Below, piece after piece: positions 27,706 through 46,653 of a stretch of DNA of 64,000 bases. The DNA comes from Nocardiopsis kunsanensis DSM 44524 (GTDB taxonomy: Bacteria; Actinomycetota; Actinomycetes; Streptosporangiales; Streptosporangiaceae). Positions within the stretch are counted from its first letter, which is position 1; every line of letters begins with the position of its first letter. The notes beneath the pieces were generated by a model. That model saw only the letters and a program-made list of their open reading frames with translations. It ran no database searches and had not been told where the DNA came from. Position numbers and translations under genes: made by a program. The stretch lies in the NCBI RefSeq assembly GCF_000340965.1, contig NZ_ANAY01000024.1:1-64000 (forward strand), read 5' to 3'.

Positions 27706-27781
27706 GGAGCGTGCAGGAGTGCGGGGGGCGACCAGCTCCCCAGCACCCTCATCACGCGCGGGGCCCTGATCCCTTTCTCGC

Positions 27782-27825
27782 AGGGGCACCGGAGCAAGGT
27801 CCGAAGGACCGGCTCCGGTGCCCCT
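27782..27825 (+). terminator. Terminator after hisC
   Basis: AGGGGCACCGGAGC pairs perfectly with GCTCCGGTGCCCCT (14 bases) around a 16-base loop. It insulates hisC from the RiPP locus. Confidence 0.8.
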
Positions 27826-28109
27826 CTTGCTGTGTCGGCCGCTTTGCGGACCGGAGCTCCAGGCCGTCCAGGAGTCCGCCATGGGACGGCAAGCCGCTCC
27901 ACCCGGCGGGGCAAGCCGCCCACCACGACTGCCGGTTCGACGCTCGGAACCCCTGCAATCCCGAAGCAAGCGATGTGCAAGGGAGCGTCCCGATGCTGGG
28001 TTCTGCGTTCCGCACCGATGGAAGGCACGCCAGGTGCACCCTCCACGTCCATCGGGACCGGTGCGGCGTACCCGTCGAGACCGATCCTTGTGAGCAGGGG
28101 ACCACTTCC
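27826..28109. other. Promoter-bearing gap upstream of the RiPP operon
   Basis: About 285 bases with no credible gene between the hisC terminator and the first RiPP gene. This is where the main promoter of the biosynthetic run should lie. I cannot assign -35/-10 elements or SARP-type direct repeats with confidence. Confidence 0.4.
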
Positions 28110-32284: not shown

Positions 32285-32328
32285 GCCGCCGCGCCGCCGG
32301 TGCCTGCCAACAGCCGAAGGAGCCAGCC

Positions 32329-33897
32329 ATGTCAGCCGTGGACACCTATGTCGAGGCCATCGTGCGCCGGGCGAGGGAACCGATGGAGCCGCACGGTTTC
32401 GAGCCCGACTGGGCGGACCAGCCGCGCCGACACAAGTACTACCCGGGTGCCGAGCACCATCCCCTTCCCTCCGCCGCACCGCTCCCCGGGACCCTGGAAG
32501 AGGGCCTGGACCCCGTCCGGGACGTGGACGCCGTCGGCCGGTGGTCGGTCGAGAGCCTGTCCTCGCTGCTGCGGGACTCCTACGGGCTCACGGGGCGGCG
32601 CCTGGCCGTGCACGGCAACCCGGATCTGCGCGGTATGCCGTGGTACCCCTCGGCGACCTGGTCGCGCGGGACCGCGTCCGGGGGAGGGCTCTACCCCTTG
32701 GAGATCTACTGGGTCGCCGGAGCAGGCGGGCCTCTGACCCCGGGCGTCTACAACTACAGCTCGCCCCACCACTCCATGCAGCGTCTCCTGACCGGAGACG
32801 TCAGCGCACACGTGCACCGGGCACTGCCGGAGGGGGCCCCGTACAGCGGCCAGTACCTGTTGGTCTCCGTCAAGTTCTGGAAGAACTCCTTCAAGTACAA
32901 CAGCTTCTCCTACCACGCAGTCACCATGGACCTCGGCACGCTCCTGGGGACCTGGCGGGCGAACGCACGGGCGGCAGGCCTCGACCTGCGGCCGCACTTG
33001 TGGTTCGACGAGCCGGCGTTGGACCGGTTGCTGGGGTTGGACCCGACGGACGAGAGCGTCATGGCCGTGATCCCCCTGCCGTGGCAGGACGGCGGACCTG
33101 CGGCCCCCTCGCCCCCGGCCGGGTCCCCCTCGGTGCGGCTCCCGGAGTCGGAACGGTCGCGTGCGACGGTGCGCTTCTCCCAGGTGACCGAGGCACACGA
33201 GCAGACCCTGGATGCCCCGGCGGTCGAACCCGAGCCGCGCCGGTTCGAGGGTGTCCGGGGGCCTGTCCCTTCCTCCGGCGCGGACGAACACCGGCTCCCC
33301 GTGCCCCGGCCGCTCGACACCTCCCTGATCACGGCCCTGCGCGAGAGGCGCAGCAGTTTCGGCCGGTTCAGTTCTTCGACACGGATGGAGCCGCAGGAGC
33401 TCTCCACGGTCCTGGCCGCTGCGGACCGCGCGACCGGCCTCGTGAACGGTTCGGGGACGAGCCGGACGGCGGTGTTCGTCAACCACGTCGCCGATCTGGC
33501 CCCCGGAGCCTACGACCACGTGCCCGGTACGTCGGCCCTGCGCCGGGTGCGCGAGGGCCCCGTGGCCGATTTCCTGCAGAGCAACTACTTCCTCAACAAC
33601 TACAACCTGGAGCAGTGCGCCGCCGTGCTCACGGTCGTGGCGCGTCCCACCGCGGTGACCTCGGCTGTAGGACCGCGCGGCTACAGGTTGGCCAACGCCG
33701 AGGTCGGAGCCGTGGCCCAGAGCGTGTACCTGGCGTGCGCCGCGCTCGGCCTCGGGTGCGGTGCGGCCCTGGGCTTCGACAACGTCTCTTACCGGGACGA
33801 ACTGCGCATCGAGGACCGACATGAGTGGCCGCTGCTGATTCTCATGATCGGCCATGAACGTACAGGTCAACCGGAGTTCGTGTACCGAAATGACTGA
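32329..33897 (+). CDS. SagB-type azoline dehydrogenase (FMN)
   Basis: A 522-residue nitroreductase-fold protein with two related halves: residues about 30-260 (SSLLRDSYGLTG; SGGGLYPLEIYW) and about 310-515 (ALRERRSSFGRF; GPRGYRLANAEVGAVAQSVYLACAALGLG; LRIEDRHEWPLLILMIGH). SagB enzymes oxidise azolines to aromatic azoles using FMN. The full double-domain length is typical of actinobacterial clusters. The start at 32329 follows AAGGAGCC, 44 bases after YcaO 1. It indicates thiazoles/oxazoles rather than azolines in the product. Confidence 0.92.
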   Translation: MSAVDTYVEAIVRRAREPMEPHGFEPDWADQPRRHKYYPGAEHHPLPSAAPLPGTLEEGLDPVRDVDAVGRWSVESLSSLLRDSYGLTGRRLAVHGNPDLRGMPWYPSATWSRGTASGGGLYPLEIYWVAGAGGPLTPGVYNYSSPHHSMQRLLTGDVSAHVHRALPEGAPYSGQYLLVSVKFWKNSFKYNSFSYHAVTMDLGTLLGTWRANARAAGLDLRPHLWFDEPALDRLLGLDPTDESVMAVIPLPWQDGGPAAPSPPAGSPSVRLPESERSRATVRFSQVTEAHEQTLDAPAVEPEPRRFEGVRGPVPSSGADEHRLPVPRPLDTSLITALRERRSSFGRFSSSTRMEPQELSTVLAAADRATGLVNGSGTSRTAVFVNHVADLAPGAYDHVPGTSALRRVREGPVADFLQSNYFLNNYNLEQCAAVLTVVARPTAVTSAVGPRGYRLANAEVGAVAQSVYLACAALGLGCGAALGFDNVSYRDELRIEDRHEWPLLILMIGHERTGQPEFVYRND

Positions 33898-33919
33898 TGT
33901 AAACGACGGTGGAGCCACG

Positions 33920-36697
33920 ATGACCGAGAACCCCGCACAGGAGCGGAGCTGGTCCCGGGCCGAGGGCCGGTGGACCAGTACGGACGTGTTCATGCTCAGG
34001 GCGGGCGGCCTGCCGTGGTCGGCAGTCGAACCGCTCGCATCCGAGGCCATGGCCGACTGGGCCGCCTCGGTCCTGGAGCTCGAGGACCGGCTGAGCACAC
34101 AGGCACAGGAGATCAGCGACCTGATCGGCCCCCTGGTGACCGAGCACGAACACGCCACACGCCAGAAACTGCTCTCGCTCCGCCGGGACGTGTTCAATCT
34201 CAGAGCACCCAAGGGGCGGACCCGCACCGCCGAAGCCCTGGCCGCGCTGCCGGACGGGATCTCCGCCACGGTCTCCGAGTGGATCTCCCTGCGGGAAGAG
34301 CTCTCCGAGAAGAAGGCGGAGGGCCAGGACCTGCTCGCGGGGGAGACCGAACGCCAACGCGACCACCTCCGGACGCTCGCACGGGACCCCAGGCTCCGGG
34401 ACGGCCTTCTGCTGGCCTCGCCCTCCTTGGAACGCCACCTGCCGACCTACCTCGACGCCGGGCACGGCCGCCTGTCCAAACGGGCCCGGAAGATCGAACG
34501 CTCGTTGGTGGAGTACGTCCTGCGCACCGCGTGCAAGACGAGCCCCTTCAGCACCCTGACCACGGTCGCGGTGGGCTCTTTCGCCCAGGGCGTCGGTGAC
34601 GCTTTCAGCTCCGATCCCCGGGGAGTGGACGGCCACAGTCACGTCAGGATCAACGTGGCCGCGCTCGGTCGGGTCGCCGACGCCGTGACCGAGGACTGGG
34701 AGCGGCTGACCGACCTCCCGGTGATCCTGTCCTCGGGGCACAGTCTCGACCACGAGAGAGTGCGCTACGTCCGTCGGACCAAACTCGGCGGGGAGAACAG
34801 CGAACCGGGTGCCTTCGACTCGCTGCGCGAGGAACTCTTCTTCCTCTCCCACAGCGGGCTGCTCGACGAGGTCATGGAAGTACTGGACAAAGAACCGGGC
34901 ATCCGCCTCGGAGAGCTCCTGGAGCGCCTCTACGGCTCCGCCGGGAGAGAGCCCGAACAGGTGCGTGCCTACGTGGAGGCACTGATCCGGCTGAGCCTGG
35001 TCCGGTTGCCGAGCTTGGACGTGGACATCCACAGCGGGGACCCGCTCCGTACCTTCCGTGACGGTCTGGCCGACCTCCGACGCCCGTGGGCCGACGCGGT
35101 CGTCACCGAACTGGACCACAGCGCCGGCCTGGTGGAGGCCTACGCGGGAGCGGACACCGATGGGCGCCGAGAACTGCGGGACGGCGTGCGGGACTCGTTC
35201 GCGCGGGTCTCGGAATCGTTGGGGACCGACCCGGCGGCGATGCCTCAGGGACTCCTCTACGAGGACGTCTCCCTGCCCGGACTCGACCTGCGCGCCGACA
35301 AGGAGATCTGGGACGGGAGCCTCCTGGCCGACCTGCAACGCTTGTCGGACATCCTGCCGTTGTTCGACATGCTGCTGCCGCACAGGCTCGTCCTCCTGGG
35401 CTTCTTCCGGGCCCGCTACGGCGAGGACGGGGTGTGCGACGACATCCTCACGTTCGTCCACGAGTTCCACCGCGACATCTACGACCAGTACCTCCAGTCC
35501 AGCTCCCGCAGGCAGGACTTCGACGAGGACGGTGAGTACGTTCCTCTGGACAACTGGTTGCGCATGCCGGAGGTCGACGCCCTCAACGACGCCCGCAAGG
35601 AGCTCATCGGCCGAATGCGCCGGGCCTACGCCGACCTGCCCGATCCCGACACCGAACTCGTCCTCGACGACGACTTCATGGACGGGGTGGCGGAGCGGCT
35701 CCCCGCCCCCGTCCACCAACTCGACTCCCGCAGTTTCTTCCTCCAGGCCTCCGAGCAGGACGGGCGGCTCACCGGGGTGGTCAACCGTTCCTACAGCGGC
35801 CTGACCCTGCTCTACTCACGGTTCCTCCACTGCTTCGAGCAGACACGTGACCCGGCCCTCGCCGACGAGCTGCGGCACACACTGCAACGGGTCTGCCCGG
35901 AGGGAACGGTCTTCGCCGAACTCACCGGCGGTTACGACACCACCAACCTCAACCTGCACCCTCCGGTCACCGAGTACGAGATCGTGTGCCCCGGCGAGTC
36001 CAGTTCCCGTCCGCCCGAGGAGTGCGTCCGGGTCGAAGAGCTCCAGATCAGGTATCGGGCCGAACAAGGGCTGCACCTGTACTGCCCGCGGATCGACCGG
36101 GTGGTGATCCCCGTCTACCTGGGATTCCTGCTGCCGCTCGCGCTGCCGGAGGTGCAACGGGCCCTGCTCCTGTTCTCCCCCACGTCGATGGCGCCCCTGG
36201 ACCTGTGGCAGGGCACCGACAGGCCGCTCGGCGACGCCCCGATCGGCGGCCACCCCCGTGTGCGCTACGGCGACCTGGTCCTGACCCGCCACACCTGGAA
36301 GACCGCGCCCGACCGCCTGCCCCGCCGGCAGCCGGATCAGAGCGACGCCGAGTGGTTCCTCTCCTGGCAGCGGTGGCGCTCCGAGCATCGGCTCCCGCGC
36401 AGGGTGTTCGCGGCCGTGGACACGGGCGGGGCGCCGGAAGGGGGCGAGGCCGACGAGGGGCCCACGCACCCGTCCAAACCGCAGTACGTGGACTTCGACA
36501 GTTTCTTCTCCCTGCAGCTGCTGGACCACATGGTCGCCAAGGCGAAACGGCGCGTGGTGATGACGGAGATGCTCCCCGGCCCCGACGACCTGTGGCTGCA
36601 GGGGGACGAGGGCGCCCACGTGGCCGAACAGACGGTGGAGATCACCAGGACCCCCGTGACCGGGGCCGACGACGAGAACGGGAGGTACCGACGATGA
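33920..36697 (+). CDS. LanB-type dehydratase, tRNA-Glu-dependent glutamylation protein
   Basis: A 925-residue Lant_dehydr_N protein. Near the N-terminus FMLRAGGLPWSAV, then RRDVFNLRAPKG and LRTACKTSPFSTLTTVAVGSF, match the conserved segments of split LanB glutamylation enzymes of thiopeptides and goadsporin. It transfers Glu from Glu-tRNA to Ser/Thr of the precursor, the first half of dehydration. The elimination domain is absent and encoded by the next gene, with which it overlaps (ATGA). Start 33920 has GGTGGAG upstream; an alternative ATG at 33890 overlaps the sagB stop. Confidence 0.92.
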   Translation: MTENPAQERSWSRAEGRWTSTDVFMLRAGGLPWSAVEPLASEAMADWAASVLELEDRLSTQAQEISDLIGPLVTEHEHATRQKLLSLRRDVFNLRAPKGRTRTAEALAALPDGISATVSEWISLREELSEKKAEGQDLLAGETERQRDHLRTLARDPRLRDGLLLASPSLERHLPTYLDAGHGRLSKRARKIERSLVEYVLRTACKTSPFSTLTTVAVGSFAQGVGDAFSSDPRGVDGHSHVRINVAALGRVADAVTEDWERLTDLPVILSSGHSLDHERVRYVRRTKLGGENSEPGAFDSLREELFFLSHSGLLDEVMEVLDKEPGIRLGELLERLYGSAGREPEQVRAYVEALIRLSLVRLPSLDVDIHSGDPLRTFRDGLADLRRPWADAVVTELDHSAGLVEAYAGADTDGRRELRDGVRDSFARVSESLGTDPAAMPQGLLYEDVSLPGLDLRADKEIWDGSLLADLQRLSDILPLFDMLLPHRLVLLGFFRARYGEDGVCDDILTFVHEFHRDIYDQYLQSSSRRQDFDEDGEYVPLDNWLRMPEVDALNDARKELIGRMRRAYADLPDPDTELVLDDDFMDGVAERLPAPVHQLDSRSFFLQASEQDGRLTGVVNRSYSGLTLLYSRFLHCFEQTRDPALADELRHTLQRVCPEGTVFAELTGGYDTTNLNLHPPVTEYEIVCPGESSSRPPEECVRVEELQIRYRAEQGLHLYCPRIDRVVIPVYLGFLLPLALPEVQRALLLFSPTSMAPLDLWQGTDRPLGDAPIGGHPRVRYGDLVLTRHTWKTAPDRLPRRQPDQSDAEWFLSWQRWRSEHRLPRRVFAAVDTGGAPEGGEADEGPTHPSKPQYVDFDSFFSLQLLDHMVAKAKRRVVMTEMLPGPDDLWLQGDEGAHVAEQTVEITRTPVTGADDENGRYRR

Positions 36698-37773
36698 CCC
36701 GAGCCGACGGTAGCGGCGAGTGGATGGCGATGCACATCTTCTACGCCGCCGATTCACGCCCCGTACTGACCGAGTGCCTGCGCCCCTTGGTTCACGACCT
36801 GCGGGAACGGAACCTGCTGGAGCGCTTCTTCTTCATCAACTACTGGCTGGAAGGCCAGCATGTCAGGTTCCGTGTCAAGCCCAGGACCCCGGAGCTGGCC
36901 GGGGAGGTCCGGGAACGTGTGGTGGAGGCCGTGACGGCCTACCTCAAGAGGCGGCCTGCGCTCTACGACTACGACTCCGAGTTCCTGCTCGAGATGTACG
37001 AGGACATGTTCCGCCTGGAGTACTCGGAGGAGGAACGGGTCGAGCGCTACGGCAGCGACGGGCCGATGCCCCTGCGGGAGAACAACACCTTCGCGTTCCT
37101 GCCCTACGAACCCGAGTACGCCAAGTACGGGGGACCGAAAGGGATCGAACTCGCCGAATGGCATTTCGAACACTCCAGTGACCTGGTGCTCAACATCCTC
37201 GCCCGCACCAACACCCACCTGCGTACCGTTCTGCTCGGTATTGCTTCCCAGCTCATGATGGTCATGGGAACGACCTTCATGCCGGACCGCGGCGATCTGG
37301 GTACCTTCTGGACCCGGTACCACGATTTCTGGCAGCACGCCTTCAAGCTCACCGACCTGGCCACGGTCGAGAAGTACGAAGAGAACTTCGACCAGATGTC
37401 CGCACGCCTCTCCCAGCGTTTCCACGACATCGAAGCGGGTGTGCACGGCACCGACGGGACCCGGCTGAGCTCCTTCGCCCACGACTGGGCCGAGCACTGT
37501 GCCGAACTGCGTGCCCGTGTGGTCGACCTGAGCGCCAAGGGCGACCTGCTCTTTCCCGCCTGGGACCCGGAGCGGATGCGCCACTCCGACGGCGCCGGGG
37601 AGTTCGAACCGGTCACGGACCCGGACACCGCACTCCGGATCCTGCTGTCCCCCTACATGCACATGACCAACAACAGGCTGGGAGCGACCATCGTCGACGA
37701 GGCCTACCTGTCGTACCTGCTCGCCCGTGTGGTGGGCCGGCCCTCCTTCCCGCTCTCGGAACGGGCCTCATGA
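36694..37773 (+). CDS. Split LanB elimination protein (SpaB C-terminal domain)
   Basis: A 359-residue thiopeptide-type biosynthesis domain protein. HIFYAADSRPVLTECLRPLV opens it; NYWLEGQHVRFRVKP, YEPEYAKYGGPKGIELAEWHFEHSSDLVL and YMHMTNNRLGATIVDEA are the hallmark SpaB_C segments. It removes glutamate to give dehydroalanine/dehydrobutyrine. Thiopeptide pyridine synthases are distant relatives; the intact KYGG and HMxxNRL motifs favour elimination, and only one such gene is present here. It is coupled on both sides by 4-base overlaps. Confidence 0.88.
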   Translation: MTRADGSGEWMAMHIFYAADSRPVLTECLRPLVHDLRERNLLERFFFINYWLEGQHVRFRVKPRTPELAGEVRERVVEAVTAYLKRRPALYDYDSEFLLEMYEDMFRLEYSEEERVERYGSDGPMPLRENNTFAFLPYEPEYAKYGGPKGIELAEWHFEHSSDLVLNILARTNTHLRTVLLGIASQLMMVMGTTFMPDRGDLGTFWTRYHDFWQHAFKLTDLATVEKYEENFDQMSARLSQRFHDIEAGVHGTDGTRLSSFAHDWAEHCAELRARVVDLSAKGDLLFPAWDPERMRHSDGAGEFEPVTDPDTALRILLSPYMHMTNNRLGATIVDEAYLSYLLARVVGRPSFPLSERAS

Positions 37774-39014
37774 TCGCGGGGAACGACCCGGCCGACGCCC
37801 GCCCCCGGATCCGTGAGGACATCGTCGTCGGGCCTGCCCTGATCAGGGGCAGCCGACCGATCCACGTGATCAAGGATCCGGTGTCGGAACGGATGATGAC
37901 GGTCGGGGCCCGGGAACACTTCATCATCTCCCGCCTCGACGGGCACCACAGTCTCGCCGACATCACCGCCGAGTACGGGGCCGAGTTCGGCCGGCGTCTC
38001 GACGAGCGGGCCTGGGGCGGGGTCATGTCGACGTTGGCCGGTCGTTCCCTCCTGGAGGGGAGTCCCCCTCCGAAAGCCGCTGAACCGGACGCCGGCAGCG
38101 GTCCCACGCTCCTCAACGCACGGATCGAGCTCCTGCGTCCGGGACCGTGGCTGGAACACACCGCCGCACGGGTGGCATGGGCCTTCTCCCCGGCGTTCGT
38201 ACTCATCGCGATGGCCGCAGCGATGGTGGCCTGCGCCACGGTGGCCCTGAACCTGGGCCCGCTCTTCGGGACCGCGACCCAGGTCTGGTCCGACCCCTGG
38301 ACCGGGGCCCTCGCGCTCGTCGTCCTCTGGGGCGTGGTGGCCCTGCACGAACTCGGCCACGGCCTGGCCGCCGTGCGGTTCGGTGCACGGGTGCGCGACT
38401 TCGGCATCGCCTGGCGGTTCCCCCTGATCGCACCGTACTGCGCGGTCGAAGAGGTCCAGGTCCTGCCGTCCCGGGACCGGGTGCGTATCGCCTTCGCCGG
38501 GGTCTTCGTCAGTCTCCTCGTGCTGCCGGTGGCTCTGCTGCTCTGGCTCCTGGCCCCGGAGGGGAGCGGCCTGTACACGTTCGCGTCGGTGCTCCTGCTG
38601 TTCGGCACCTTCGCGGCCCTGATCAACTTCGTGCCGTTCCTCAAGCTGGACGGCTACTCCATGCTCAACCACGCCCTCGGCACGGAGAACCTCGCGCGGG
38701 ACGCCCGCAGCCATGTGCTCGGACGACTGCGTGCACGGTTCGGCGGAGCTGAGCAACCCCCCAGTCCCCCACGGCCGATCGGGTTCGCTTACGTGACCTA
38801 TGCGACCTCGTCGGTGCTCTTCCACACGGCCCTCACAGCTGTTCTCGCGGCCTGGTGGTTCACCTTTCTGGACCACCTCATCGGCCCGTGGACTGCTGCA
38901 GGGCTCCTCGCTGCGACGGCCGTCGCGATCATCGCCGTCTACCGGACCAGAGCGGTCCGCCGACGCGCCGCCAGCGACACACGACACCGGTCGACAGGCA
39001 AGGAAGGAACATGA
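37770..39014 (+). CDS. M50-like membrane metalloprotease with N-terminal PqqD-like domain
   Basis: A 414-residue protein. Residues about 20-97 form a PqqD/RRE-like winged helix (RSRPIHVIKDPVSERMMTVG pattern, then LDGHHSLADITAEYG). Then come several membrane helices with HELGHG (193-198, zinc ligands) and NFVPFLKLDG (286-295), the two site-2 protease motifs. Such proteins occur in RiPP loci, where the role is uncertain; leader recognition plus intramembrane cleavage would make it the leader peptidase. No other protease is in the locus. Coupled at both ends. Confidence 0.85.
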   Translation: MIAGNDPADARPRIREDIVVGPALIRGSRPIHVIKDPVSERMMTVGAREHFIISRLDGHHSLADITAEYGAEFGRRLDERAWGGVMSTLAGRSLLEGSPPPKAAEPDAGSGPTLLNARIELLRPGPWLEHTAARVAWAFSPAFVLIAMAAAMVACATVALNLGPLFGTATQVWSDPWTGALALVVLWGVVALHELGHGLAAVRFGARVRDFGIAWRFPLIAPYCAVEEVQVLPSRDRVRIAFAGVFVSLLVLPVALLLWLLAPEGSGLYTFASVLLLFGTFAALINFVPFLKLDGYSMLNHALGTENLARDARSHVLGRLRARFGGAEQPPSPPRPIGFAYVTYATSSVLFHTALTAVLAAWWFTFLDHLIGPWTAAGLLAATAVAIIAVYRTRAVRRRAASDTRHRSTGKEGT

Positions 39015-39931
39015 ACAGAGAAGACGACGGTGTGAACGCCGTGGTTGTGGAGGCCCTGACCAAGGCCTACGGAGGAAAGACCGTGGTCGACGGGGTATCG
39101 CTCACCGTTCGTGAGGGTGAGTTCTTCGGTCTCCTCGGCCCCAACGGCGCGGGCAAGACCACGACGATGGAGATGATGGAGGGGCTGCGCAAGGCCGACA
39201 GCGGTTCGGTGAGCCTCCTCGGCTCCTCGCCCCAGCCCCGCAACACCGCGCTACTGCCGAGGATCGGGGTCCAACTCCAGGCTTCGGCCTTCTTCGAGCG
39301 CCTCACGGCACACGAACAGCTGGTCACTTTCGCGGCCCTCTACGGTGCGTCCACGGACCGTGTCGACGACACCCTGGAACTGGTGGGGCTCACCGAGCAC
39401 TCCCATGTCCGGGAGGACAAGCTCTCCGGCGGCCAACGCCAACGGTTGTCGATCGCCTGTGCACTGGTCCACGACCCCGAGCTCCTCTTCCTGGACGAGC
39501 CGACCGCCTCCCTGGACCCGCAAGCGCGCCGCAATCTGTGGGACGTGCTGCGCGGGATCAAGGAGCGAGGCAAGACGATCGTCTACACCACGCACTACAT
39601 CGAGGAGGCGGAGCGTCTGTGCGACCGGATCGCCATCCTCGACCACGGCCGTGTGGTCGCGATGGACACGCCCGGTGCTCTGGTCGGTGGCCTGGGCACC
39701 GCCATGAGCATGGAGCTCCCCGAAGGTGTCCTCGGCGTCGACGAGCTCCTCTCCCTCCCGGGCGTGGACGACGTGCGAACGGAGGGGGACCGGATCCGCA
39801 TCACCGCATCCGACAGCAATGCCGTCATGCGTGCCCTCACCGATCGCGGTGCGGCGGGCCGGCTCCGGACCCGTGACGCCTCGTTGGAGGACGTCTTTCT
39901 CGAACTCACCGGAAGGGAGTACCGGTCGTGA
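39011..39931 (+). CDS. ABC exporter ATPase (DrrA-like)
   Basis: A 306-residue ATPase with Walker A GPNGAGKTT, signature LSGGQRQRLSIA, Walker B LLFLDEPTASLDP and the DrrA-type C-terminal extension. No C39 peptidase domain is fused, so leader removal must be separate. AAGGAAGGAAC precedes the ATG, which overlaps the M50 gene stop. With the next gene it forms the exporter, and perhaps self-immunity, of the RiPP. Confidence 0.94.
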   Translation: MNREDDGVNAVVVEALTKAYGGKTVVDGVSLTVREGEFFGLLGPNGAGKTTTMEMMEGLRKADSGSVSLLGSSPQPRNTALLPRIGVQLQASAFFERLTAHEQLVTFAALYGASTDRVDDTLELVGLTEHSHVREDKLSGGQRQRLSIACALVHDPELLFLDEPTASLDPQARRNLWDVLRGIKERGKTIVYTTHYIEEAERLCDRIAILDHGRVVAMDTPGALVGGLGTAMSMELPEGVLGVDELLSLPGVDDVRTEGDRIRITASDSNAVMRALTDRGAAGRLRTRDASLEDVFLELTGREYRS

Positions 39932-40680
39932 TCGCCTTTCAGCAGATGTCCGTTGCGGTCGGCAAGGGTTTCGTCCGCGACCGGGCCGCCCTGTTCTTCT
40001 CGTTCCTGCTGCCGCTGTTCTTCCTGGTCCTCTTCGCGATCCTCTTCGGGGCCATGGAAGGGTCGGAGAACACCCTCGAGCCCATCCAGTACATCGCGCC
40101 GGGGATCCTCTCGTTCGGTATCGCGATGTCGGCGGTGACCGCGTCCGCGCTCACCCTGGTCACCTGGCGCCAGAACGGCTTGCTGCGCAGGCTCCGACTG
40201 ACCCCGGTGAACCCGTTCACCATCCTGACCTCGCGTTTTGCCGTGACCGTGGTGGTAGCGGTGCTGCAAGCGGCACTGTTCCTCGGGGTGGCTTTCCTCC
40301 CGTTCTTCGGATTGCGCCTGGAGAGCACCTGGTGGATGGCGATCCCGCTCTTCCTCATCGGGGTGCTCTCGTTCTTCTCGCTCGGGATCCTCATCGGGTC
40401 CCTCTTCAGGACGGAGCAGTCGGCCTCGGCCGCTGCCAACCTGATCGTGCTTCCGCTGGGCTTCCTCTCGGGCACCTTCTTCCCCTTGGACTTCGCGCCC
40501 TCCTGGATGGACACGGTCTCCCTGGCCAGCCCTCTGCGGCACATGAACGACGGAATGCTGGCGCTCCTGGTCCGCGGAGAAGGGCCGGAGGCGCTGTTGG
40601 TGCCCTGCGGTGTGCTTCTCCTGTTCACCCTGGTCACCACCGGTCTGGCGGGTTACTTCATCACACGCGGGGAGCAGTGA
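39928..40680 (+). CDS. ABC-2 type permease of the RiPP exporter
   Basis: A 250-residue permease with six hydrophobic segments: about 20-43 (LFFSFLLPLFFLVLFAILF), 55-80, 102-125, 137-157, 168-185 and 223-245. LRRLRLTPVNPFTIL between helices 2 and 3 is typical of DrrB-like proteins. The GTG start overlaps the ATPase stop (GTGA). Product export or resistance is inferred from context. Confidence 0.92.
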   Translation: MIAFQQMSVAVGKGFVRDRAALFFSFLLPLFFLVLFAILFGAMEGSENTLEPIQYIAPGILSFGIAMSAVTASALTLVTWRQNGLLRRLRLTPVNPFTILTSRFAVTVVVAVLQAALFLGVAFLPFFGLRLESTWWMAIPLFLIGVLSFFSLGILIGSLFRTEQSASAAANLIVLPLGFLSGTFFPLDFAPSWMDTVSLASPLRHMNDGMLALLVRGEGPEALLVPCGVLLLFTLVTTGLAGYFITRGEQ

Positions 40681-40827
40681 GGCGGGGAGCGCCGGTACGG
40701 GCAAGAGCGCTGCCATGAGTCTGCAAGCAGCGGACGGAACCATGGTTGCTCGGGCGCGCGACCCCTCCTCCTCGCGGGGCGGGGACGCGTACCCGGTCCA
40801 TGTGACGACCGTCGAAAGGAAGCACTG

Positions 40828-41022
40828 ATGCGCAGAGGAACCGGACCGGACGCGCTGTCCGGGCTCCAGGGTGAGCTGGAGCTCCTGGAGTCGGAGACCT
40901 TCGAGGTCCTCGACCTGGTCGAGGCCCGCGAGGAGATGCTCGGCAGCACCACCTCCACCACCAGCTGCACCTCCAGCTGCTCCAGCAGCAGCTGCTCCAG
41001 CACCAGCTGCTCCGGCGGCTGA
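40828..41022 (+). CDS. RiPP precursor peptide 1
   Basis: A 64-residue precursor. The leader (about 1-40) has LLESETFEVLDL and REEMLGS, shared with the other three. The core (41-64) begins TTSTTSCTSSCSSSSC and is Ser/Thr/Cys except for two final Gly: 22 of 24 residues can be modified, with four Cys. GAAAGGAAG lies seven bases before the ATG. It is the most divergent of the four copies. The exact cleavage site, placed after MLGS, is inferred. Confidence 0.9.
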   Translation: MRRGTGPDALSGLQGELELLESETFEVLDLVEAREEMLGSTTSTTSCTSSCSSSSCSSTSCSGG

Positions 41023-41041
41023 CGAGGAAGGACACGTCGCC

Positions 41042-41215
41042 TTGACGAACGGCAACCTCGACCTCCTGCACAACGAACTGGAGCAGCTCGAGTCGGAGAC
41101 CTTCGAGGTCCTGGACTTCGCCGGCTCCCCGGAGGAGATGCTCGCCGGCACCACCTCCACCAGCAGCACCAGTACGTGCAGCAGCTGCAGTAGTTGCACC
41201 AGCTGCGCGTCCTGA
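41042..41215 (+). CDS. RiPP precursor peptide 2 (TTG start)
   Basis: A 57-residue precursor beginning at TTG, the only in-frame start that keeps a leader of family length; GAGGAAGGA lies about ten bases upstream, right after the stop of precursor 1. The leader has QLESETFEVLDFA and PEEMLAG. The core (37-57) starts TTSTSSTSTCSSCSSC and ends in a Cys-Ala-Ser; 20 of 21 residues are Ser, Thr or Cys, with four Cys. Use of TTG may lower its translation relative to its siblings. Confidence 0.85.
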   Translation: MTNGNLDLLHNELEQLESETFEVLDFAGSPEEMLAGTTSTSSTSTCSSCSSCTSCAS

Positions 41216-41250
41216 TACACGAACCCCATGACGAGTGAAGGAAGAGTGGC

Positions 41251-41424
41251 ATGAGTCAGCCCCTGTACGGTCTGCGGACCGAGCTGGAGCAGCTCGAGTC
41301 GGAGACCTTCGAGGTCCTGGACTTCGCTGACTCCCCGGAGGAGATGCTCGCCGGCACCACCTCCACCAGCAGCACCAGCTGCTGCTCGAGCTGCACCAGT
41401 TGCACCAGCTGCGCGTCCTTCTGA
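41251..41424 (+). CDS. RiPP precursor peptide 3
   Basis: A 57-residue precursor. The leader opens MSQPLYGLRTELEQLESETF and ends PEEMLAG. The core (36-57) starts TTSTSSTSCCSSCTSC and ends Ala-Ser-Phe; it has five Cys including a Cys-Cys pair, and 20 of 22 residues are Ser, Thr or Cys. The terminal Phe is the only aromatic residue in any core. GAAGGAAGAG precedes the ATG. Near-identical to precursor 4, including 5' flanking sequence. Confidence 0.92.
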   Translation: MSQPLYGLRTELEQLESETFEVLDFADSPEEMLAGTTSTSSTSCCSSCTSCTSCASF

Positions 41425-41458
41425 GGCGCCTCCCCCGCACGAGTGAAAGAAGAGTGAC

Positions 41459-41638
41459 ATGAGTCAGCCCCTGTACGGTCTGCGCAACGAGCTGGAGCAG
41501 CTCGAGTCGGAGACCTTCGAGGTCCTGGACTTCGCCGAGTCCCCCGAGGAGATGCTCTCCGGTACCACCTCCACCAGCAGCACCAGCTGCTGCTCGAGCT
41601 GCACCAGCTGCACCAGCACGGCCAGCAGCTGTGCCTAG
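41459..41638 (+). CDS. RiPP precursor peptide 4
   Basis: A 59-residue precursor. The leader opens MSQPLYGLRNELEQLESETF and ends PEEMLSG. The core (36-59) starts as in peptide 3 (TTSTSSTSCCSSCTSC) but ends with a Ser/Thr/Ala segment and Cys-Ala; 22 of 24 residues are Ser, Thr or Cys, with five Cys. The ATG follows AAAGAAGAG. With peptide 3 it reflects a recent tandem duplication. Confidence 0.92.
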   Translation: MSQPLYGLRNELEQLESETFEVLDFAESPEEMLSGTTSTSSTSCCSSCTSCTSTASSCA

Positions 41639-41643
41639 CTGAA

Positions 41644-41688
41644 GCGGCCGCCGTCCCCGAGTGCCCCGAGGAACCCCCCCTCGGCCGC
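41644..41688 (+). promoter_or_regulatory. Hairpin between precursor 4 and YcaO 2
   Basis: GCGGCCG and CGGCCGC form perfect 7-base arms around a 31-base loop in the 63-base gap. It could act as an attenuator or mRNA processing site, so that precursor message exceeds that of YcaO 2. Modest evidence. Confidence 0.35.
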
Positions 41689-41701
41689 GGCAGGGGACGG
41701 T

Positions 41702-43678
41702 ATGCCCACCGCCGCCGTACCGGGACCTTTCCGGTACGGCGGTCCTGACGACGTGAAGGAGACCGGAAGACAGGTGTACGACATGGGAACCGCCGAGGGC
41801 GGTCTGGCGTTCCTGAGCCGAGAGCTGGACCTGCGCTGGTCGCGGTCCGGGCTCCCCGCGGGCCGGAACCCCCGGGTCCGTGAACTGGGTGAGCGGGACA
41901 TGGTGCCGAACACCGCGGGCAGCCGGCACACCGAAGTCTTCCTCACGCCCCGTTCGGTGTTGATCGGCCCGGTCGGCGGGGGAGAGGCCGGTCCGTGCAC
42001 GCGGTGTCTGGTGGGCCGTTGGCAGCGGCTGCGGCCCGAGGCCGAGCGCAGGGCCCTGGAGGCCGACACGGCCTTCGAACGCAGGGCCGCTGATCCCTGG
42101 ATCACCGACTTCACTGTCGAGAGCGTCCATCAGCTGTACACCGATGCCGTCCTGAACGGTCGTGACCACGGGTGGTCCGACCGGACCGCCGGTGTGGTCG
42201 AGCTGGCCCTGTCCTCGCTCACGGTGCGGACCTTTCCGCTGCTGGCCGACTCCGGTTGTCCCCACTGTGCCCGGCCGGTGCCGACGAGCCCGGAGACCGC
42301 TCTGCCCGAGCTGCGCACGAGGACCAAACCCGACCAGGACACCTACCGGCTCCGCGGCTCCGACGGGTTCGACGTCGACACGAGTGTCTTCGTCAACCCT
42401 GTCTGCGGTGTGCTCGGAGAGACCGTCCACGTGGACCTGACGTCCCCGACCATGGCTCCGGCGACGGGGAACATGCGGATCACGGCCGCCGGCCTGTTGC
42501 TGGACGTGGGATGGTCCGGTCAAACCGATTCCTACGCCACGAGCCGGCTCTTCGGTGTCTTCGAGGGGCTCGAACGCCATGCGGGTACACAGCAGAGGCG
42601 CCACGACACCCTGGTGACGGGCAGCCGCAACGAACTCCTCGACCGCGGTCTACGGGTGCTGGACCCCTCGGAGTGCGGACTCTACGACGACGCGTTCCAC
42701 GGCGAGGACGGGACCCGTCTGAACCCGTACACCCCGGATCTGCGGACACGGTGGGTGTGGGGGCGCTCGCTGCGCGACGACGAGCCGGTCCTGGTGCCCG
42801 AACAGCTCGTCTACTACGTACGGGACGGTGAACCCGGAGCCTTCGTGGACGAGTGCTCCAACGGGTGTGCGGTCGGCAGTACTCCGGAGGAAGCGCTCCT
42901 GCACGGTCTCCTGGAACTGGTGGAGCGCGACGCCTTCGTCCTCGCCTGGTACGCCGGGCTTGCGTTGCCGGAGATCGACATTACCTCGCTGGCCGATCCC
43001 GAGACCCGCCACATGATCGACCGCATCCGTCTGCACGGATACGACGTGCGCCTCTTCGACAACCGGATCGATCTGCCCTTCCCCGTGGTCAACGCGGTAG
43101 GGGTGCGTCGGGACGGCGGGATGGGCAGCTTGTGTTTCGCCGCGGGCTCGGGCCTCGACCCGGGTTCAGCCGTGCGCTCGGCCGTGGAGGAGATCGCCAC
43201 CTACATCCCGTCGCTTCCTCTGCGCACCGAGCGACGCCGCACGGAGATCGAGGCCATGGTGGACGACCACGGCCTGGTGCGTGAGCTGAAGGACCACCCG
43301 TTGCTGTTCGCCCTGCCCAGGATGGCCCCGGAAGCGGACTTCCTGTTGGGGGAGCGCCGGGAGCGCCGGTTCGAGGACCTGTACCGGGACTGGGAGTCCA
43401 GGCGCCCCCGCAGCGAGGACCTGTCGGAGGATCTGCGTTCGTGCGTCTCGGTCCTGACCGAACGCGGCTTCGACGTCCTCGGGGTCGACCAGACCTCACC
43501 CGAGCAGGCTGCCGCCGGGTTGTCCAACGTGGCCGTGATCGTGCCGGGTCTGACACCCATCGACTTCGGTTGGCACAAACAGCGTGTGTTCACCCTGCCG
43601 CGCTTCCGTGAATTGGTGGAGCGGACCGCTGGAGCGGGGGCAGGGGTACCGAACCCGGTCCCCCACCCCTTCCCCTAG
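41702..43678 (+). CDS. YcaO cyclodehydratase 2
   Basis: A 658-residue paralogue of the protein at 30293. Zinc-ribbon pairs fall at almost the same positions (CTRC 99-102, CPHC 186-189). The YcaO core has FEGLERHAG, ECSNGCAVGSTPEEALLHGLLELVERDAF and VEEIATY, and the C-terminus is again PHPFP. Both copies therefore look active. It may act on different residues (Cys versus Ser/Thr) or at different core positions. The ATG is preceded by AGGGGAC. It lies beyond the precursors, apart from the other enzymes, and is convergent with the DUF1707 gene 13 bases away. Confidence 0.93.
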   Translation: MPTAAVPGPFRYGGPDDVKETGRQVYDMGTAEGGLAFLSRELDLRWSRSGLPAGRNPRVRELGERDMVPNTAGSRHTEVFLTPRSVLIGPVGGGEAGPCTRCLVGRWQRLRPEAERRALEADTAFERRAADPWITDFTVESVHQLYTDAVLNGRDHGWSDRTAGVVELALSSLTVRTFPLLADSGCPHCARPVPTSPETALPELRTRTKPDQDTYRLRGSDGFDVDTSVFVNPVCGVLGETVHVDLTSPTMAPATGNMRITAAGLLLDVGWSGQTDSYATSRLFGVFEGLERHAGTQQRRHDTLVTGSRNELLDRGLRVLDPSECGLYDDAFHGEDGTRLNPYTPDLRTRWVWGRSLRDDEPVLVPEQLVYYVRDGEPGAFVDECSNGCAVGSTPEEALLHGLLELVERDAFVLAWYAGLALPEIDITSLADPETRHMIDRIRLHGYDVRLFDNRIDLPFPVVNAVGVRRDGGMGSLCFAAGSGLDPGSAVRSAVEEIATYIPSLPLRTERRRTEIEAMVDDHGLVRELKDHPLLFALPRMAPEADFLLGERRERRFEDLYRDWESRRPRSEDLSEDLRSCVSVLTERGFDVLGVDQTSPEQAAAGLSNVAVIVPGLTPIDFGWHKQRVFTLPRFRELVERTAGAGAGVPNPVPHPFP

Positions 43679-43691
43679 ACGGGCGTCCGGC

Positions 43692-44168
43692 TCAGGACCG
43701 GCGTCGGCGCACGAGTGTCACGATCAGCGGTGGGATGCCCCAGAAACCGCAGAAGAGCGCCCACCCGAGCACACCCACCGGGTAGCCCATGACCAGAGCC
43801 GGGACCGCCCAGATGAAGAACATGACCGCGCTGAAGATCCCCCAGACGGCGAGGGGGCTCAGCCGTGAGCCCTCGTCGTCCTCCCCGGTGTCCTCCACCT
43901 CATCGGTGCTCTCCACCTCCTCGGAACCCTTCTGCGACCGGTGGGGCCGCTCCGGGTGACTCTCACCGGTCGCCGCGAGGTCGGTCACGAGGGTCTCGAG
44001 CTCACCACGGGTCCGTGCTCCGAGAGCGGCGTCGACCCGCTCGGCGTGCTCGTCCTGCGCCAGCCGCCCCTCCTCGAAAGCGGTCCGCAACATGGTTGTG
44101 GCGGCATCGCGGTCGGCGTCCGAGACACGCTGCAAGTCATCGCTGCGGTCGTCCTGCACTGTGGTCAT
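43692..44168 (-). CDS. DUF1707 protein with two C-terminal membrane helices
   Basis: A 158-residue protein. Residues about 10-65 are a DUF1707 module (RVSDADRDAATTMLRTAFEEGRL). An acidic linker (EEVESTDEVEDTGEDDEG) follows, then two helices (about 104-123 and 128-150) ending RRRRS. The start overlaps the regulator stop (ATGA on the minus strand), so it is translationally coupled to the SARP gene, an unusual link suggesting a shared signalling role. Function unknown. Confidence 0.8.
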   Translation of the reverse strand: MTTVQDDRSDDLQRVSDADRDAATTMLRTAFEEGRLAQDEHAERVDAALGARTRGELETLVTDLAATGESHPERPHRSQKGSEEVESTDEVEDTGEDDEGSRLSPLAVWGIFSAVMFFIWAVPALVMGYPVGVLGWALFCGFWGIPPLIVTLVRRRRS

Positions 44169-46060
44169 CCTCCGGTTTCTTCGGCCGCCGCGAGCGGGGC
44201 ACGGGACGTGGTCACGACTTCTCGGAGCAGTCGGTAGACGCCGAGGCGGTCGGTACCACAATGGTGGATCAGGGAGGCGTCGTACAGCTCTCCCAGAGCT
44301 TGGTCGAATTCGGTGGCTGTTCCGGGGAAGTCCGCGTAGAGCTCCCGTGCGGCCACCCCCTGGTGCTCGCCGGCGGCCAGGCCGAGGAAGAGGCGTTGGG
44401 CCGGCCTGCTCACTTCGTCGAAGCAGTGCAGGAACTCCTCCCGTAGTGAGAACTCCGATTCCGAAGCGGCCGAGAGCTGCTCGAAGGGCGAGTCCTCCAG
44501 CAACGTGGCGAACTCCTCCAGTGCGAGATGCGGAGTGGAGACGAATTTGGCCCCCGCCAACCGGACCGCTCCGGGAAGGCCGCCGCACGCGTCGGCGATG
44601 CGTTGCAGAACTGCGGGGCCCCGGACCTCGGCCTCCTCCCCGATGATGTGGCTCAGGAGTCGGACCGCGTGGTTACGGCTCAACGGGGCGAGGCTGTGGG
44701 GCCGGGCCCCGTGGAAGGCGATCAGACGGGGGAGCGCGTTACGGCTGGTGACGAGTGCTCGGGATTCCGAGGACGGAGGGAGCAGGGGAACCGACTCGGC
44801 GGAGTGACGGACACCGTCGACGACGAGGAGGCAGGGGCGGTCGGCCACCACCGACTGCCAAGCGCTGAGCAGTCGAGCCTCGTGTGTGGCCCGGCCGGCC
44901 TCCGGACCCAGCTCCACCCCTGCCTGCCGTAGCAGGTCGCACAGGACCGAGGGCCGGTCCCGGCGGGTGCCGTCGGGCCGGTCGAAACGCGCAAGGTAGA
45001 CACCTCCGCTGAATCTGTCCTCGCAACGTTTCGCTGTACGCAAGGCCGTCTCCGTCTTGCCGACGGAGGGAGGTCCGGTCACGACCACGACCGGTGTGTC
45101 GGTGTCGATCACCTCCTCGACCAGTGACTCGACCGTCTCGCAGCGTCCGAAGAAATCGGGGGACAGGGGGAGGTGGTTGGGGCCGGAGCGCCTCGGGACC
45201 GGATCCTTGTCGGGTGGAGGGGCGGGGGCCTCGGTGCCGGTCCAGCGCCGACTTCGTGGGATCAGGGTCACGGCCTCGCCGGCGCCGCCCGACGGGGGCA
45301 TGACATCGGCCTGACGCAGCACTTGGAGGTGGAGTTCCTGCAGGCTCTGGCGGGGTTCGATGCCCAACTCGGTGGTGAGGTACTCGTGGACCTTGCGGTA
45401 CTCGTTCAGGGCCTCCGTCGTGCGTCCGGAGCGGTAGAGCGCTTCGATGAGCTGTTCCCAGTAGCGTTCCCGCTCAGGACGGTGGGTGATGGCTTGGCGG
45501 ACCTGGGGTGCCAGGCCCTCGAAGTCCCCCAGGGTCAGGTCGATGGTGAACCGGCGCTCGAGCACGTCGAACCATTGGTCGTTCAGCGAGGGGGTCTCCT
45601 CGCGGTGCAGGGTCTCCGAGGGGATGTTGGACAGCGCCGGTCCCTTCCACAGTTTCTCGGCCCGGACGAGTGCCGAGCGTTCGTTCTCCACCTCCCCCGA
45701 GGACCGGTAGGCGGAGCCCTTCTCCACCAGCCGGCGGAAGACGAGGAGGTCGAGGGAGTCGCTGTTGGCGGGAATGTTTATGGAATACCCGCGGGGCATG
45801 GTGGTGATCGGGTCGGCGTCGCGGTCGTACTTCCGGAGAAGTCGTCGGAGCCGGAGTATGTATGTCGGCAGGGTGACATCGGCGTTGGCCGGTGCATCCT
45901 CACCCCAAAGTGCGTACTTCAGGTACTCGAGAGAGACGAAGGAGTTGCACTTGAGGAGAAGGCTCGCGAGTATGGCGCTCGGTTTCGTCGAGGGCAGGAC
46001 GACGTCCTCGCCGTCCGAGACGACGGTGGCGGGCCCGAGGATCTCGAATCTGTAGTTCAT
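44165..46060 (-). CDS. AfsR/SARP family regulator lacking the TPR region
   Basis: A 631-residue activator, probably of the RiPP locus. It has an OmpR-like winged helix (1-95; MNYRFEILGPATVV, PTYILRLRRLL), a bacterial transcriptional activator domain (about 100-245; ERERYWEQLIEALYRSGRTTEALNEYRKV), and an NB-ARC ATPase (Walker A GPPSVGKTET near 325; CLLVVDGV Walker B). It stops after the winged-helix part of NB-ARC, with no TPR repeats as in AfsR. The ATG gives the family-typical beginning. It is upstream of and coupled to the DUF1707 gene. Confidence 0.88.
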   Translation of the reverse strand: MNYRFEILGPATVVSDGEDVVLPSTKPSAILASLLLKCNSFVSLEYLKYALWGEDAPANADVTLPTYILRLRRLLRKYDRDADPITTMPRGYSINIPANSDSLDLLVFRRLVEKGSAYRSSGEVENERSALVRAEKLWKGPALSNIPSETLHREETPSLNDQWFDVLERRFTIDLTLGDFEGLAPQVRQAITHRPERERYWEQLIEALYRSGRTTEALNEYRKVHEYLTTELGIEPRQSLQELHLQVLRQADVMPPSGGAGEAVTLIPRSRRWTGTEAPAPPPDKDPVPRRSGPNHLPLSPDFFGRCETVESLVEEVIDTDTPVVVVTGPPSVGKTETALRTAKRCEDRFSGGVYLARFDRPDGTRRDRPSVLCDLLRQAGVELGPEAGRATHEARLLSAWQSVVADRPCLLVVDGVRHSAESVPLLPPSSESRALVTSRNALPRLIAFHGARPHSLAPLSRNHAVRLLSHIIGEEAEVRGPAVLQRIADACGGLPGAVRLAGAKFVSTPHLALEEFATLLEDSPFEQLSAASESEFSLREEFLHCFDEVSRPAQRLFLGLAAGEHQGVAARELYADFPGTATEFDQALGELYDASLIHHCGTDRLGVYRLLREVVTTSRAPLAAAEETGG

Positions 46061-46653
46061 CGCTTTGCTGCGCGCCTCGTCTGTCAGGGGATGGCCTTCC
46101 GGGGGAGCCCGAGTTCTCTCGGGCCCGTTCCTCCCGCGCGGGCCGAGCTGTGCCGGCGCGGTCACTGCAGGGTTGGGACATGGTGGGTAGAACGTGGGGC
46201 GGGCCTCGACGGAGGTGTTTCACGGAGTGCCGGTCTCAGCAATACGTTTCGGCTCTCACTGCCGAGGGGCCGGGGCTTGTGGCCCGTCTTTCCCATTTTC
46301 TTGTGGAACGATCCTGTTCCAGGAAATTCATGTCGAGTACCCGTTGTCATCCCCTCGGGCGGGAAGATTGGTTCTCCGTGCCGGGGGCAGGGGATCACCG
46401 TCTGCGAGTGCACTGTGACCGCTGGGGTTACGCTCGGTTCCGATCTCCCTTCAGTCTGTTGCGGGATGTTGGTGTTTGTGGCTGATGTCCTTTATATCTA
46501 TTTATTACGCCTCACTTGTGAGTGCAACTGTTTTCGCCGAGAGAAATTCAATCGCAATTAAGGGACTTGGTCCCGATGGGTATCTCGGTCGGCCGCCCCT
46601 GCTACGGCCGAGCGCGGGCCTGCGCAGAACAGGTACCGGAAGCCGGACACACA
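46061..46653. other. Intergenic region upstream of the SARP gene
   Basis: About 590 bases without a credible gene; ORFs across it are short and lack ribosome sites. Bases 46480-46560 are AT-rich (TTTATATCTATTTATTACG) and probably hold the SARP promoter on the minus strand or a remnant. Nothing else was recognised. Confidence 0.45.

What the first reader, a model, noticed from the sequence alone, without database searches (positions are those of the whole stretch)
40828..41638. Four RiPP precursors whose cores are almost only Ser, Thr and Cys
The sequence shows four tandem short genes with a common leader (ESETFEVLD, EEML) and cores of 21-24 residues, of which 20-22 are Ser, Thr or Cys. The only other core residues are a few Ala, Gly and one Phe. 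With a cyclodehydratase, an azoline dehydrogenase and a split LanB in the same locus, nearly every residue is a possible thiazole, oxazole/methyloxazole, dehydroalanine or dehydrobutyrine. Known linear azole peptides and thiopeptides have mixed cores; such a uniformly modifiable chain would be an unusual, heavily conjugated product. Exact modifications are inference.
Basis: partly seen in the sequence, partly recalled or inferred. Interest (0 to 1): 0.92.

Follow-up and report, generated by a model that had tools for sequence, protein, structure and literature searches.

The report
Peptide precursors almost wholly Ser/Thr/Cys
Four small genes encode peptides made almost only of serine, threonine and cysteine beside enzymes that turn such residues into rings and double bonds; the same design recurs in other actinomycetes and probably gives an unusually heavily modified linear peptide.

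Summary
In detail: four tandem precursors at 40828-41638 have cores of 21-24 residues with 20-22 Ser/Thr/Cys. They are not an unknown family: all four pass NCBIfam's thiazolylpeptide-type bacteriocin cut-off. The unusual part is the branch: the same leader and near-pure Ser/Thr/Cys cores occur in 24 genomes (54 precursors, 36 distinct cores, median 92% Ser/Thr/Cys). The locus has a dehydrogenase, split LanB, M50 protease, exporter and two paralogous fused YcaO cyclodehydratases, but no pyridine synthase was found. Best reading: a linear, goadsporin-like azole plus dehydroamino-acid peptide, not a thiopeptide. Core variation stays mostly within Ser/Thr/Cys (14 of 17 variable columns, about 27% expected). 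The 16 two-YcaO clusters have Thr-rich, Cys-poor cores and the 6 one-YcaO clusters Cys-rich ones, without overlap, though lineages are few. A close precedent in print is the predicted coryneazolisin (PMC4603692), so 'known cores are mixed' is too strong. How many residues are modified is unknown.

The parts
27540..30296 (+). TOMM F protein (ocin-ThiF-like), leader-binding partner; true start uncertain, conserved from about 28070
   Evidence: TIGR03693 72.7 bits (partial, cut-off 561.9), TIGR03882 57.4 bits over cut-off 36.9; homologues in related clusters
30293..32284 (+). YcaO1, E1-like domain fused to YcaO cyclodehydratase, C-terminus ...PHPFP
   Evidence: TIGR03604 291.8 bits, TIGR03882 98.8 bits; PF02624 1.6e-78
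32281..33897 (+). SagB-type azoline dehydrogenase (start uncertain)
   Evidence: TIGR03605 133.3 bits over cut-off 78.4; PF00881 7.8e-19
33854..36697 (+). LanB N-part: tRNA-Glu-dependent glutamylation enzyme (start uncertain)
   Evidence: PF04738 1e-39; best solved relatives 6ec7 (listed as lantibiotic dehydratase domain protein; that it is TbtB is recalled) 6.6e-35 and 9jhq (goadsporin biosynthetic protein) 1.1e-14
36694..37773 (+). LanB C-part: glutamate elimination enzyme; the only Lant_dehydr_C protein found in the cluster
   Evidence: PF14028 2.1e-45; own 100/100 clade apart from the pyridine synthases; YEPEYAKYGG and HMTNNR stretches alike in the LanB chains 5ehk and 9g04
37770..39014 (+). 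M50 intramembrane metalloprotease with weak PqqD-like N-terminus; probable leader peptidase
   Evidence: PF02163 4.3e-10; daptide_HExxH 127.9 bits, cut-off 300; PqqD E 0.016, below cut-off
39011..39931 (+). ABC exporter, ATP-binding subunit
   Evidence: PF00005 3.1e-31
39928..40680 (+). ABC-2 type exporter, membrane subunit
   Evidence: PF01061 5.5e-27
40828..41022 (+). precursor A1, core TTSTTSCTSSCSSSSCSSTSCSGG
   Evidence: NF033400 41.9 bits over cut-off 30
41042..41215 (+). precursor A2 (TTG start), core TTSTSSTSTCSSCSSCTSCAS
   Evidence: NF033400 49.2, TIGR03892 45.7 bits
41251..41424 (+). precursor A3, core TTSTSSTSCCSSCTSCTSCASF
   Evidence: NF033400 49.1, TIGR03892 43.4 bits
41459..41638 (+). 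precursor A4, core TTSTSSTSCCSSCTSCTSTASSCA
   Evidence: NF033400 52.1, TIGR03892 33.6 bits
41711..41743 (+). 15-bp RNA hairpin between precursors and YcaO2, possible attenuator or processing site
   Evidence: whole gap 41639-41785 folds at z -4.18, 0 of 200 shuffles as stable; mixed result in relatives
41783..43678 (+). YcaO2, second E1-like/YcaO cyclodehydratase (longest ORF from 41702; start chosen by eye), C-terminus ...PNPVPHPFP
   Evidence: TIGR03604 302 bits, TIGR03882 79.7 bits; YcaO1 and YcaO2 both fall inside this family's own YcaO clade
44165..46165 (-). SARP/BTAD-type regulator, likely part of the cluster
   Evidence: PF03704 1.9e-34; 64-85% identical neighbour in the Nocardiopsis clusters where that side was held

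Best explanation
This is a biosynthetic cluster for a small set of linear, hypermodified RiPPs. The F protein and the E1-like domains of the YcaOs bind the shared LESETFEVLD leader (inferred). Two paralogous cyclodehydratases make thiazolines and (methyl)oxazolines from Cys, Ser and Thr, and the SagB-type dehydrogenase oxidises them to azoles (inferred from families). The split LanB then glutamylates and eliminates Ser/Thr, most likely those just before an azole as in goadsporin and carnazolamide, giving Dha/Dhb-azole runs (inferred). No pyridine synthase closes the chain, so the product stays linear. The M50 protease removes the leader near EEML-G/A and the ABC transporter exports the product (inferred). 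The second YcaO, born by duplication inside this family, goes with Thr-rich, Cys-poor cores and may be the enzyme that extends cyclisation to Thr/Ser (weakly supported).
For: Enzymes by HMM. Related clusters with near-pure S/T/C precursors: 11 loci of the first survey including the window and one contig fragment, 54 precursors in 24 genomes overall. LanB-C is in a 100/100 clade of 11, all from these clusters, apart from a 100/100 clade of 9 that contains the two proteins over the pyridine-synthase cut-off. Its NF045556 score (98.6) is like that of the proteins beside true pyridine synthases in G006 (96.4 and 105.8 against 435.9 and 389.7), and it is the only NF045556 match in the host genome. 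LanB-N is nearest in the PDB to a lantibiotic dehydratase domain protein (6ec7) and a goadsporin protein. Mostly low pN/pS and a conserved alphabet. YcaO1/YcaO2 duplication. No overlap in core composition between 6 one-YcaO and 16 two-YcaO clusters.
Against: No expression or chemistry. The precursors belong to NCBIfam families named after thiazolylpeptides. By profile the LanB-C alignment finds the pyridine synthase TbtD first in the PDB (2.5e-17), TsrE second (2.4e-11) and the LanB chain 5ehk third (7.5e-10); the single sequence also ranks TbtD first (0.0037) before 5ehk (0.0075). The tree does not firmly join this clade to known elimination enzymes (the fork above it has 74/90). Core pN/pS was 1.08 in the unnamed f20 group, perhaps inflated by AGN/TCN serine switches. 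The YcaO-number pattern rests on few independent lineages.
Confidence: 0.77

Rival explanations
1. A thiopeptide or pyritide: LanB-C also, or instead, carries out the [4+2] cycloaddition, or a divergent pyridine synthase was missed.
For: Precursors match NCBIfam thiazolylpeptide models; LanB-C hits TbtD best in the PDB; other Nocardiopsis clusters use a divergent pyridine-synthase-like protein that PF14028 does not list.
Against: One Lant_dehydr_C protein only; the large ORFs between about 27.5 and 43.7 kb are all assigned to other functions; no further NF045556 match in the genome; clade apart from pyridine synthases; it has both the YxxExxxYGG and HxxxNR stretches of LanB chains; TbtD and PbtD rows show neither, TsrE shows only the first in part.
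Confidence: 0.1
2. A class I lanthipeptide-like product: Dha/Dhb are trapped by the many Cys to give thioether rings.
For: Split LanB and many Cys next to Ser/Thr.
Against: No LanC-type cyclase among the cluster proteins scanned (no dedicated search made); two YcaOs and an azoline dehydrogenase point to azoles; LanB-N is nearest to 6ec7 and a goadsporin protein.
Confidence: 0.05
3. The second YcaO is not for Ser/Thr but for a different part of the core or a different precursor, and composition differs between lineages by history alone.
For: One-YcaO clusters are few and five of six form one YcaO clade; paralogues could be regiospecific rather than residue-specific.
Against: Complete non-overlap: mean Thr fraction 0.12-0.17 (6 one-YcaO clusters) against 0.19-0.36 (16 two-YcaO clusters); Cys 0.25-0.27 against 0.10-0.20. 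G273 and G309 carry the same genus label, differ in YcaO number and follow the rule.
Confidence: 0.5
4. Silent or decaying cluster: the small genes are not translated or not modified.
For: No expression data; A2 has a TTG start; a strong hairpin lies before YcaO2.
Against: Low pN/pS and conserved cores across Nocardiopsis; intact enzyme sets in many genomes.
Confidence: 0.05

Closest known systems
Coryneazolisin (predicted TOMM group, Cox et al. 2015, PMC4603692)
   Same: Two D proteins, lanthipeptide-like dehydratases, no [4+2] enzyme, core nearly all Cys/Ser/Thr (sections 12 and 26 and passages read).
   Different: There one D protein is discrete and one fused, here both carry an E1-like domain; their core has an Ile; other hosts. 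Sequences not compared here.
Goadsporin (and spongiicolazolicins)
   Same: Azoles plus Dha from YcaO, dehydrogenase and split LanB, linear product; LanB-N hits a goadsporin protein.
   Different: The azole motif X-(S/T/C)-X leaves other residues between azoles (passages); one cyclodehydratase GodD; I saw no acetyltransferase among the proteins scanned here. Spongiicolazolicins known here only from passages of later papers.
Thiopeptides (thiomuracin, berninamycin, TP-1161)
   Same: Precursor family name, F protein, YcaO, dehydrogenase, split LanB; some occasionally have an additional fused cyclodehydratase.
   Different: No pyridine synthase found.
Dehydrazoles, e.g. carnazolamide (PMC10676384)
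   Same: 8 azoles and 8 Dha in one peptide, Dha just before azoles (abstract and parts 1-2 of 7 read).
   Different: Dehydration by a LanM-type enzyme, nitrile-hydratase-like leader, from a Flavobacteriia; 20 S/T/C in a 30-residue core.
Streptolysin S-type and plantazolicin-type linear azole peptides
   Same: Stretches of adjacent modifiable residues, SagB/SagD-type enzymes (recalled).
   Different: No LanB; more other residues in the core (recalled, not tested).

Membership tests
NCBIfam thiazolylpeptide-type bacteriocin precursors (NF033400 / TIGR03892) | Score over the curated cut-off | tested here: met
   NF033400: 4 of 4 window precursors; TIGR03892: 3 of 4. Of 4 relatives tested, 2 pass at least one and 2 neither.
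TOMM / azole-containing RiPP | Cyclodehydratase (YcaO plus E1-like partner) beside a Cys/Ser/Thr-rich precursor | tested here: met
TOMM / azole-containing RiPP | Azoles present in the product | not testable with these tools
   Needs MS or NMR
Thiopeptide | [4+2] pyridine synthase in the cluster | tested here: not met
   Only NF045556 match in the genome is LanB-C at 98.6 bits (cut-off 325), in another clade than the pyridine synthases
Thiopeptide | Split LanB and F protein | tested here: met
   the F match TIGR03693 is partial and below its cut-off
Goadsporin-type linear azole peptide | YcaO, dehydrogenase and split LanB without pyridine synthase | tested here: met
Goadsporin-type linear azole peptide | N-acetyltransferase (godH-like) | tested here: inconclusive
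   None among the cluster proteins scanned; no dedicated search made
Goadsporin-type linear azole peptide | Core with X-(S/T/C)-X spacing | tested here: not met
   Cores are nearly continuous S/T/C (motif)
Coryneazolisin | Two D proteins, LanB-like dehydratases, no [4+2] enzyme | tested here: met
   against the text
Coryneazolisin | One discrete and one fused D protein | tested here: not met
   Both YcaOs carry TIGR03882
Coryneazolisin | Sequence relation of enzymes and leader | not tested
   Corynebacterium sequences were not fetched

The most novel reading that the evidence does not exclude
A distinct, undescribed class of linear RiPPs spread through several actinomycete families, in which a sequence of 20-37 residues drawn from a three-letter alphabet (Ser, Thr, Cys) is converted along most of its length to azoles and dehydroamino acids, giving an extended, conjugated and stiff backbone; two duplicated cyclodehydratases have split the work between Cys and Ser/Thr, and the alphabet rather than the exact order is what selection keeps.
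Probability: 0.35. Interest if true: 0.82.

Novelty: new variant of a known kind. Interest (0 to 1): 0.6.

Why it matters
It gives a natural, multi-genus set of substrates in a three-letter alphabet in which site selection by YcaO and LanB can be read almost without other residues in between, and a clean test of what a second YcaO does (Thr-rich cores with it, Cys-rich without). If the chains are modified along most of their length they would be among the most densely backbone-modified ribosomal peptides, a new scaffold for antibiotic or metal-binding chemistry (inference).

Tried and rejected
Rejected: thiopeptide (no pyridine synthase found). Rejected: chance low-complexity DNA (only these four of 898 reading frames in the window; selection). 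Rejected: wholly unknown precursor family. Rejected as hits of profile A1: G458 (no S/T/C core) and G212 (related leader, mixed core), so 18 rather than 20 of 394 class genomes (own genome counted) carry this kind of core; one of the 18, G434, has a short core, 9 of 11 S/T/C. One of the six loci, L006 (Streptomyces sp. YIM 130001), matched only at the end of the query and showed no such precursor in the scan.

Led nowhere: Pfam gives no match for the precursors. Rfam finds only a tRNA in the window. The gap holding the hairpin folds better than shuffles in the window (0 of 200 as stable) and L043 (0 of 200), less so in L040 (6 of 200), and not significantly in L041 (31 of 200). Word searches for six leader and core strings found 0 papers. 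The other nine literature searches listed no paper that I recognised as being about this group; I saw the listings only, apart from the seven papers of which parts were read, and the library holds open-licence papers only.

Rows dropped: the LanB-C tree used 35 of the 52 PF14028 matches (7 duplicates of the same genomes and 10 weak or partial ones left out) plus 7 matches found by NF045556 only. The YcaO tree used 39 of the 103 matches, those inside regions already held; it carries a long-branch warning, and the Actinomadura YcaO1 and the Stackebrandtia YcaO are unresolved in it. The selection test used 41 of the 54 precursors (L054, L055, L117 and L124 not grouped) and only equal-length cores. 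Composition by YcaO number leaves out 2 of 24 loci (L124, L038) whose clusters are cut by contig ends; in L042 the second YcaO is itself cut by a contig end.

Full report
Observation. The four genes exist as described. Their cores have 20-22 Ser/Thr/Cys among 21-24 residues, and no other of 898 reading frames in the window ends this way. All four precursors pass the cut-off of NCBIfam NF033400 and three that of TIGR03892, both named thiazolylpeptide-type bacteriocin. The finding is therefore real, but not outside known families.

Surroundings. Reading along the plus strand: F protein, YcaO1, SagB-type dehydrogenase, LanB N-part, LanB C-part, M50 protease, ABC ATPase and permease, the four precursors, YcaO2, and a SARP-type regulator on the other strand. 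From YcaO1 to the permease the reading frames overlap by a few bases. A strong hairpin lies between A4 and YcaO2 (41711-41743). The same gap also folds into hairpins in three relatives, clearly better than shuffles in L043, marginally in L040 and not in L041. It may keep enzyme expression below that of the precursors (inference).

Relatives. A search with YcaO2 gave six named contigs: Nocardiopsis listeri (two), Nocardiopsis sp. JB363, Actinomadura rudentiformis, Stackebrandtia albiflava and a partial match in a Streptomyces; the last showed no such precursor. NF033400 matched 30 of 198 relatives, 25 of them among the 40 listed genomes of the own genus; six of those carry the type of this finding (G000, G006, G016, G022, G025, G038) and 19 another, noted below. 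Fetched clusters share F protein, YcaO, dehydrogenase, both LanB parts, M50 and an ABC ATPase, where the region or contig reaches that far. The permease was not detected by tblastn in L048, L054, L055 or L110-L113, and six clusters have one YcaO. Stackebrandtia has six precursors and Actinomadura five. In 29 aligned precursors L8, L15, E16, T19, F20, E21 and D24 (numbers of A3) are invariant. Their profile matched 20 of 394 genomes of the class and 5 of 396 of the phylum; in the class set 18 have this kind of core. In all I have 54 precursors from 24 genomes, 36 distinct cores of 11-37 residues, Ser/Thr/Cys fraction 0.82-1.00, median 0.92.

Real genes, selected alphabet. Within orthologous groups silent differences dominate per site (core pN/pS 0.04-0.25 in six of seven groups). 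The exception is the unnamed f20 group at 1.08, where serine AGN/TCN switches may inflate the count. Of 17 variable core columns involving S/T/C, 14 vary only among Ser, Thr and Cys and 3 leave the alphabet; random single-base changes that alter the residue or make a stop would stay inside in 168 of 612 cases, 27%. By hand, a binomial tail gives about 3e-6, treating columns as independent. So the modifiable character of the residues appears to be what is kept.

Linear, not a thiopeptide. A thiopeptide needs an elimination enzyme and a pyridine synthase. Here one protein of that kind is found. In the thiopeptide-like clusters G006:C7 and G006:C17 the pyridine synthases score 435.9 and 389.7 bits with NF045556 (cut-off 325) and the adjacent proteins 96.4 and 105.8; the window's protein scores 98.6 and is the genome's only match. 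In the tree of 42 proteins it lies in a 100/100 clade made only of proteins from these clusters, away from the 100/100 pyridine-synthase clade; the tree does not firmly join it to known elimination enzymes. It has the YEPEYAKYGG and HMTNNR stretches that the LanB chains 5ehk and 9g04 show in similar form; the TbtD and PbtD rows show neither, TsrE the first in part (that these stretches hold catalytic residues is recalled). Against this, sequence searches of the PDB rank TbtD first. None of 14 further genomes with related precursors has a match over the NF045556 cut-off, although G262 and G434 have other matches of 131-148 bits on other contigs.

Two cyclodehydratases. The YcaOs of these clusters form one clade (100/99), and YcaO1 and YcaO2 both lie inside it, so they seem to have arisen by duplication within the family (YcaO2 81/90; eight YcaO1 rows 97/93; the Actinomadura YcaO1 unresolved). 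Six clusters have one YcaO, sixteen have two. One-YcaO clusters have cores with 25-27% Cys and 12-17% Thr on average; two-YcaO clusters 10-20% Cys and 19-36% Thr, with no overlap. G273 and G309 bear the same genus label, differ in YcaO number and follow the rule. The lineages are not independent, so this is a lead, not a proof: the second YcaO may have opened Ser/Thr to cyclisation.

Mechanism. In goadsporin and carnazolamide azoles come first and Dha is placed at Ser just before an azole (passages of PMC5303826; abstract and the first two of seven parts of PMC10676384). Applied here, Cys would become thiazole and many Ser/Thr either azole or Dha/Dhb, giving runs of alternating units. How complete this is cannot be read from sequence. 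Carnazolamide turns 8 of its 20 core Ser/Thr/Cys into azoles and 8 into Dha and leaves Ser8, Thr13 and Ser30 intact, so dense modification has a precedent. The M50 protease is a plausible leader peptidase: M50 enzymes cleave epipeptide and pearlin precursors (passages of PMC10885120), and the best NCBIfam model is a daptide protease at 127.9 bits, below its cut-off of 300.

Comparison. The nearest description I found in print is coryneazolisin, a predicted group with two D proteins, LanB-like dehydratases, no [4+2] enzyme and a core of 10 Cys/Ser/Thr, Ile and 5-7 more (section 26 of PMC4603692). It differs in having one discrete D protein, and its sequences were not compared. Goadsporin and, by a later paper's account, spongiicolazolicins keep other residues between azoles. 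No paper in the library prints the six leader and core strings searched. I file it as a new variant: a goadsporin-like linear azole/dehydro RiPP branch with near-pure Ser/Thr/Cys cores and, here, duplicated cyclodehydratases.

Verdict. Observation confirmed; interpretation partly supported; interest 0.6, because the conserved alphabet across genera and the YcaO-number pattern make it testable, while precedents for the gene set and for near-pure cores exist.

Noticed in passing
L011-L029 (19 Nocardiopsis genomes): A second precursor family in the genus: usually two genes with cores close to SGSSSCTSTSCCGSSSCC[SG][SG]GSCG, nearly invariant between species. Where looked at (G003, G012, G033), a protein scoring 133-153 bits with the pyridine-synthase model, not listed by PF14028, lies near.
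   Followed up: partly
window 41711-41743: 15-bp hairpin between the precursors and YcaO2; the same gap in L040, L041 and L043 also folds into hairpins, above shuffles in L043, weaker in the other two.
   Followed up: partly
L056 (G000:C6:302000-321900): A further YcaO locus in the same genome with two dehydrogenase-like stretches next to it.
   Followed up: no
L119 (G212): A cluster with a related leader (LEAEVFEIEEIEE) and enzymes but a mixed core, perhaps an early or decayed branch.
   Followed up: no
window 18109-18617, minus strand: Two small overlapping ORFs that look, from recall, like a YefM/YoeB-type toxin-antitoxin pair (sequences).
   Followed up: no
window 39595-41460, minus strand: A 621-aa open frame antisense to the precursors; taken as a GC-rich artefact because the plus-strand genes look to be under purifying selection.
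   Followed up: no
L055 19579-19782: The Stackebrandtia cluster has a sixth precursor about 11 kb downstream of the other five, after the ABC gene.
   Followed up: no
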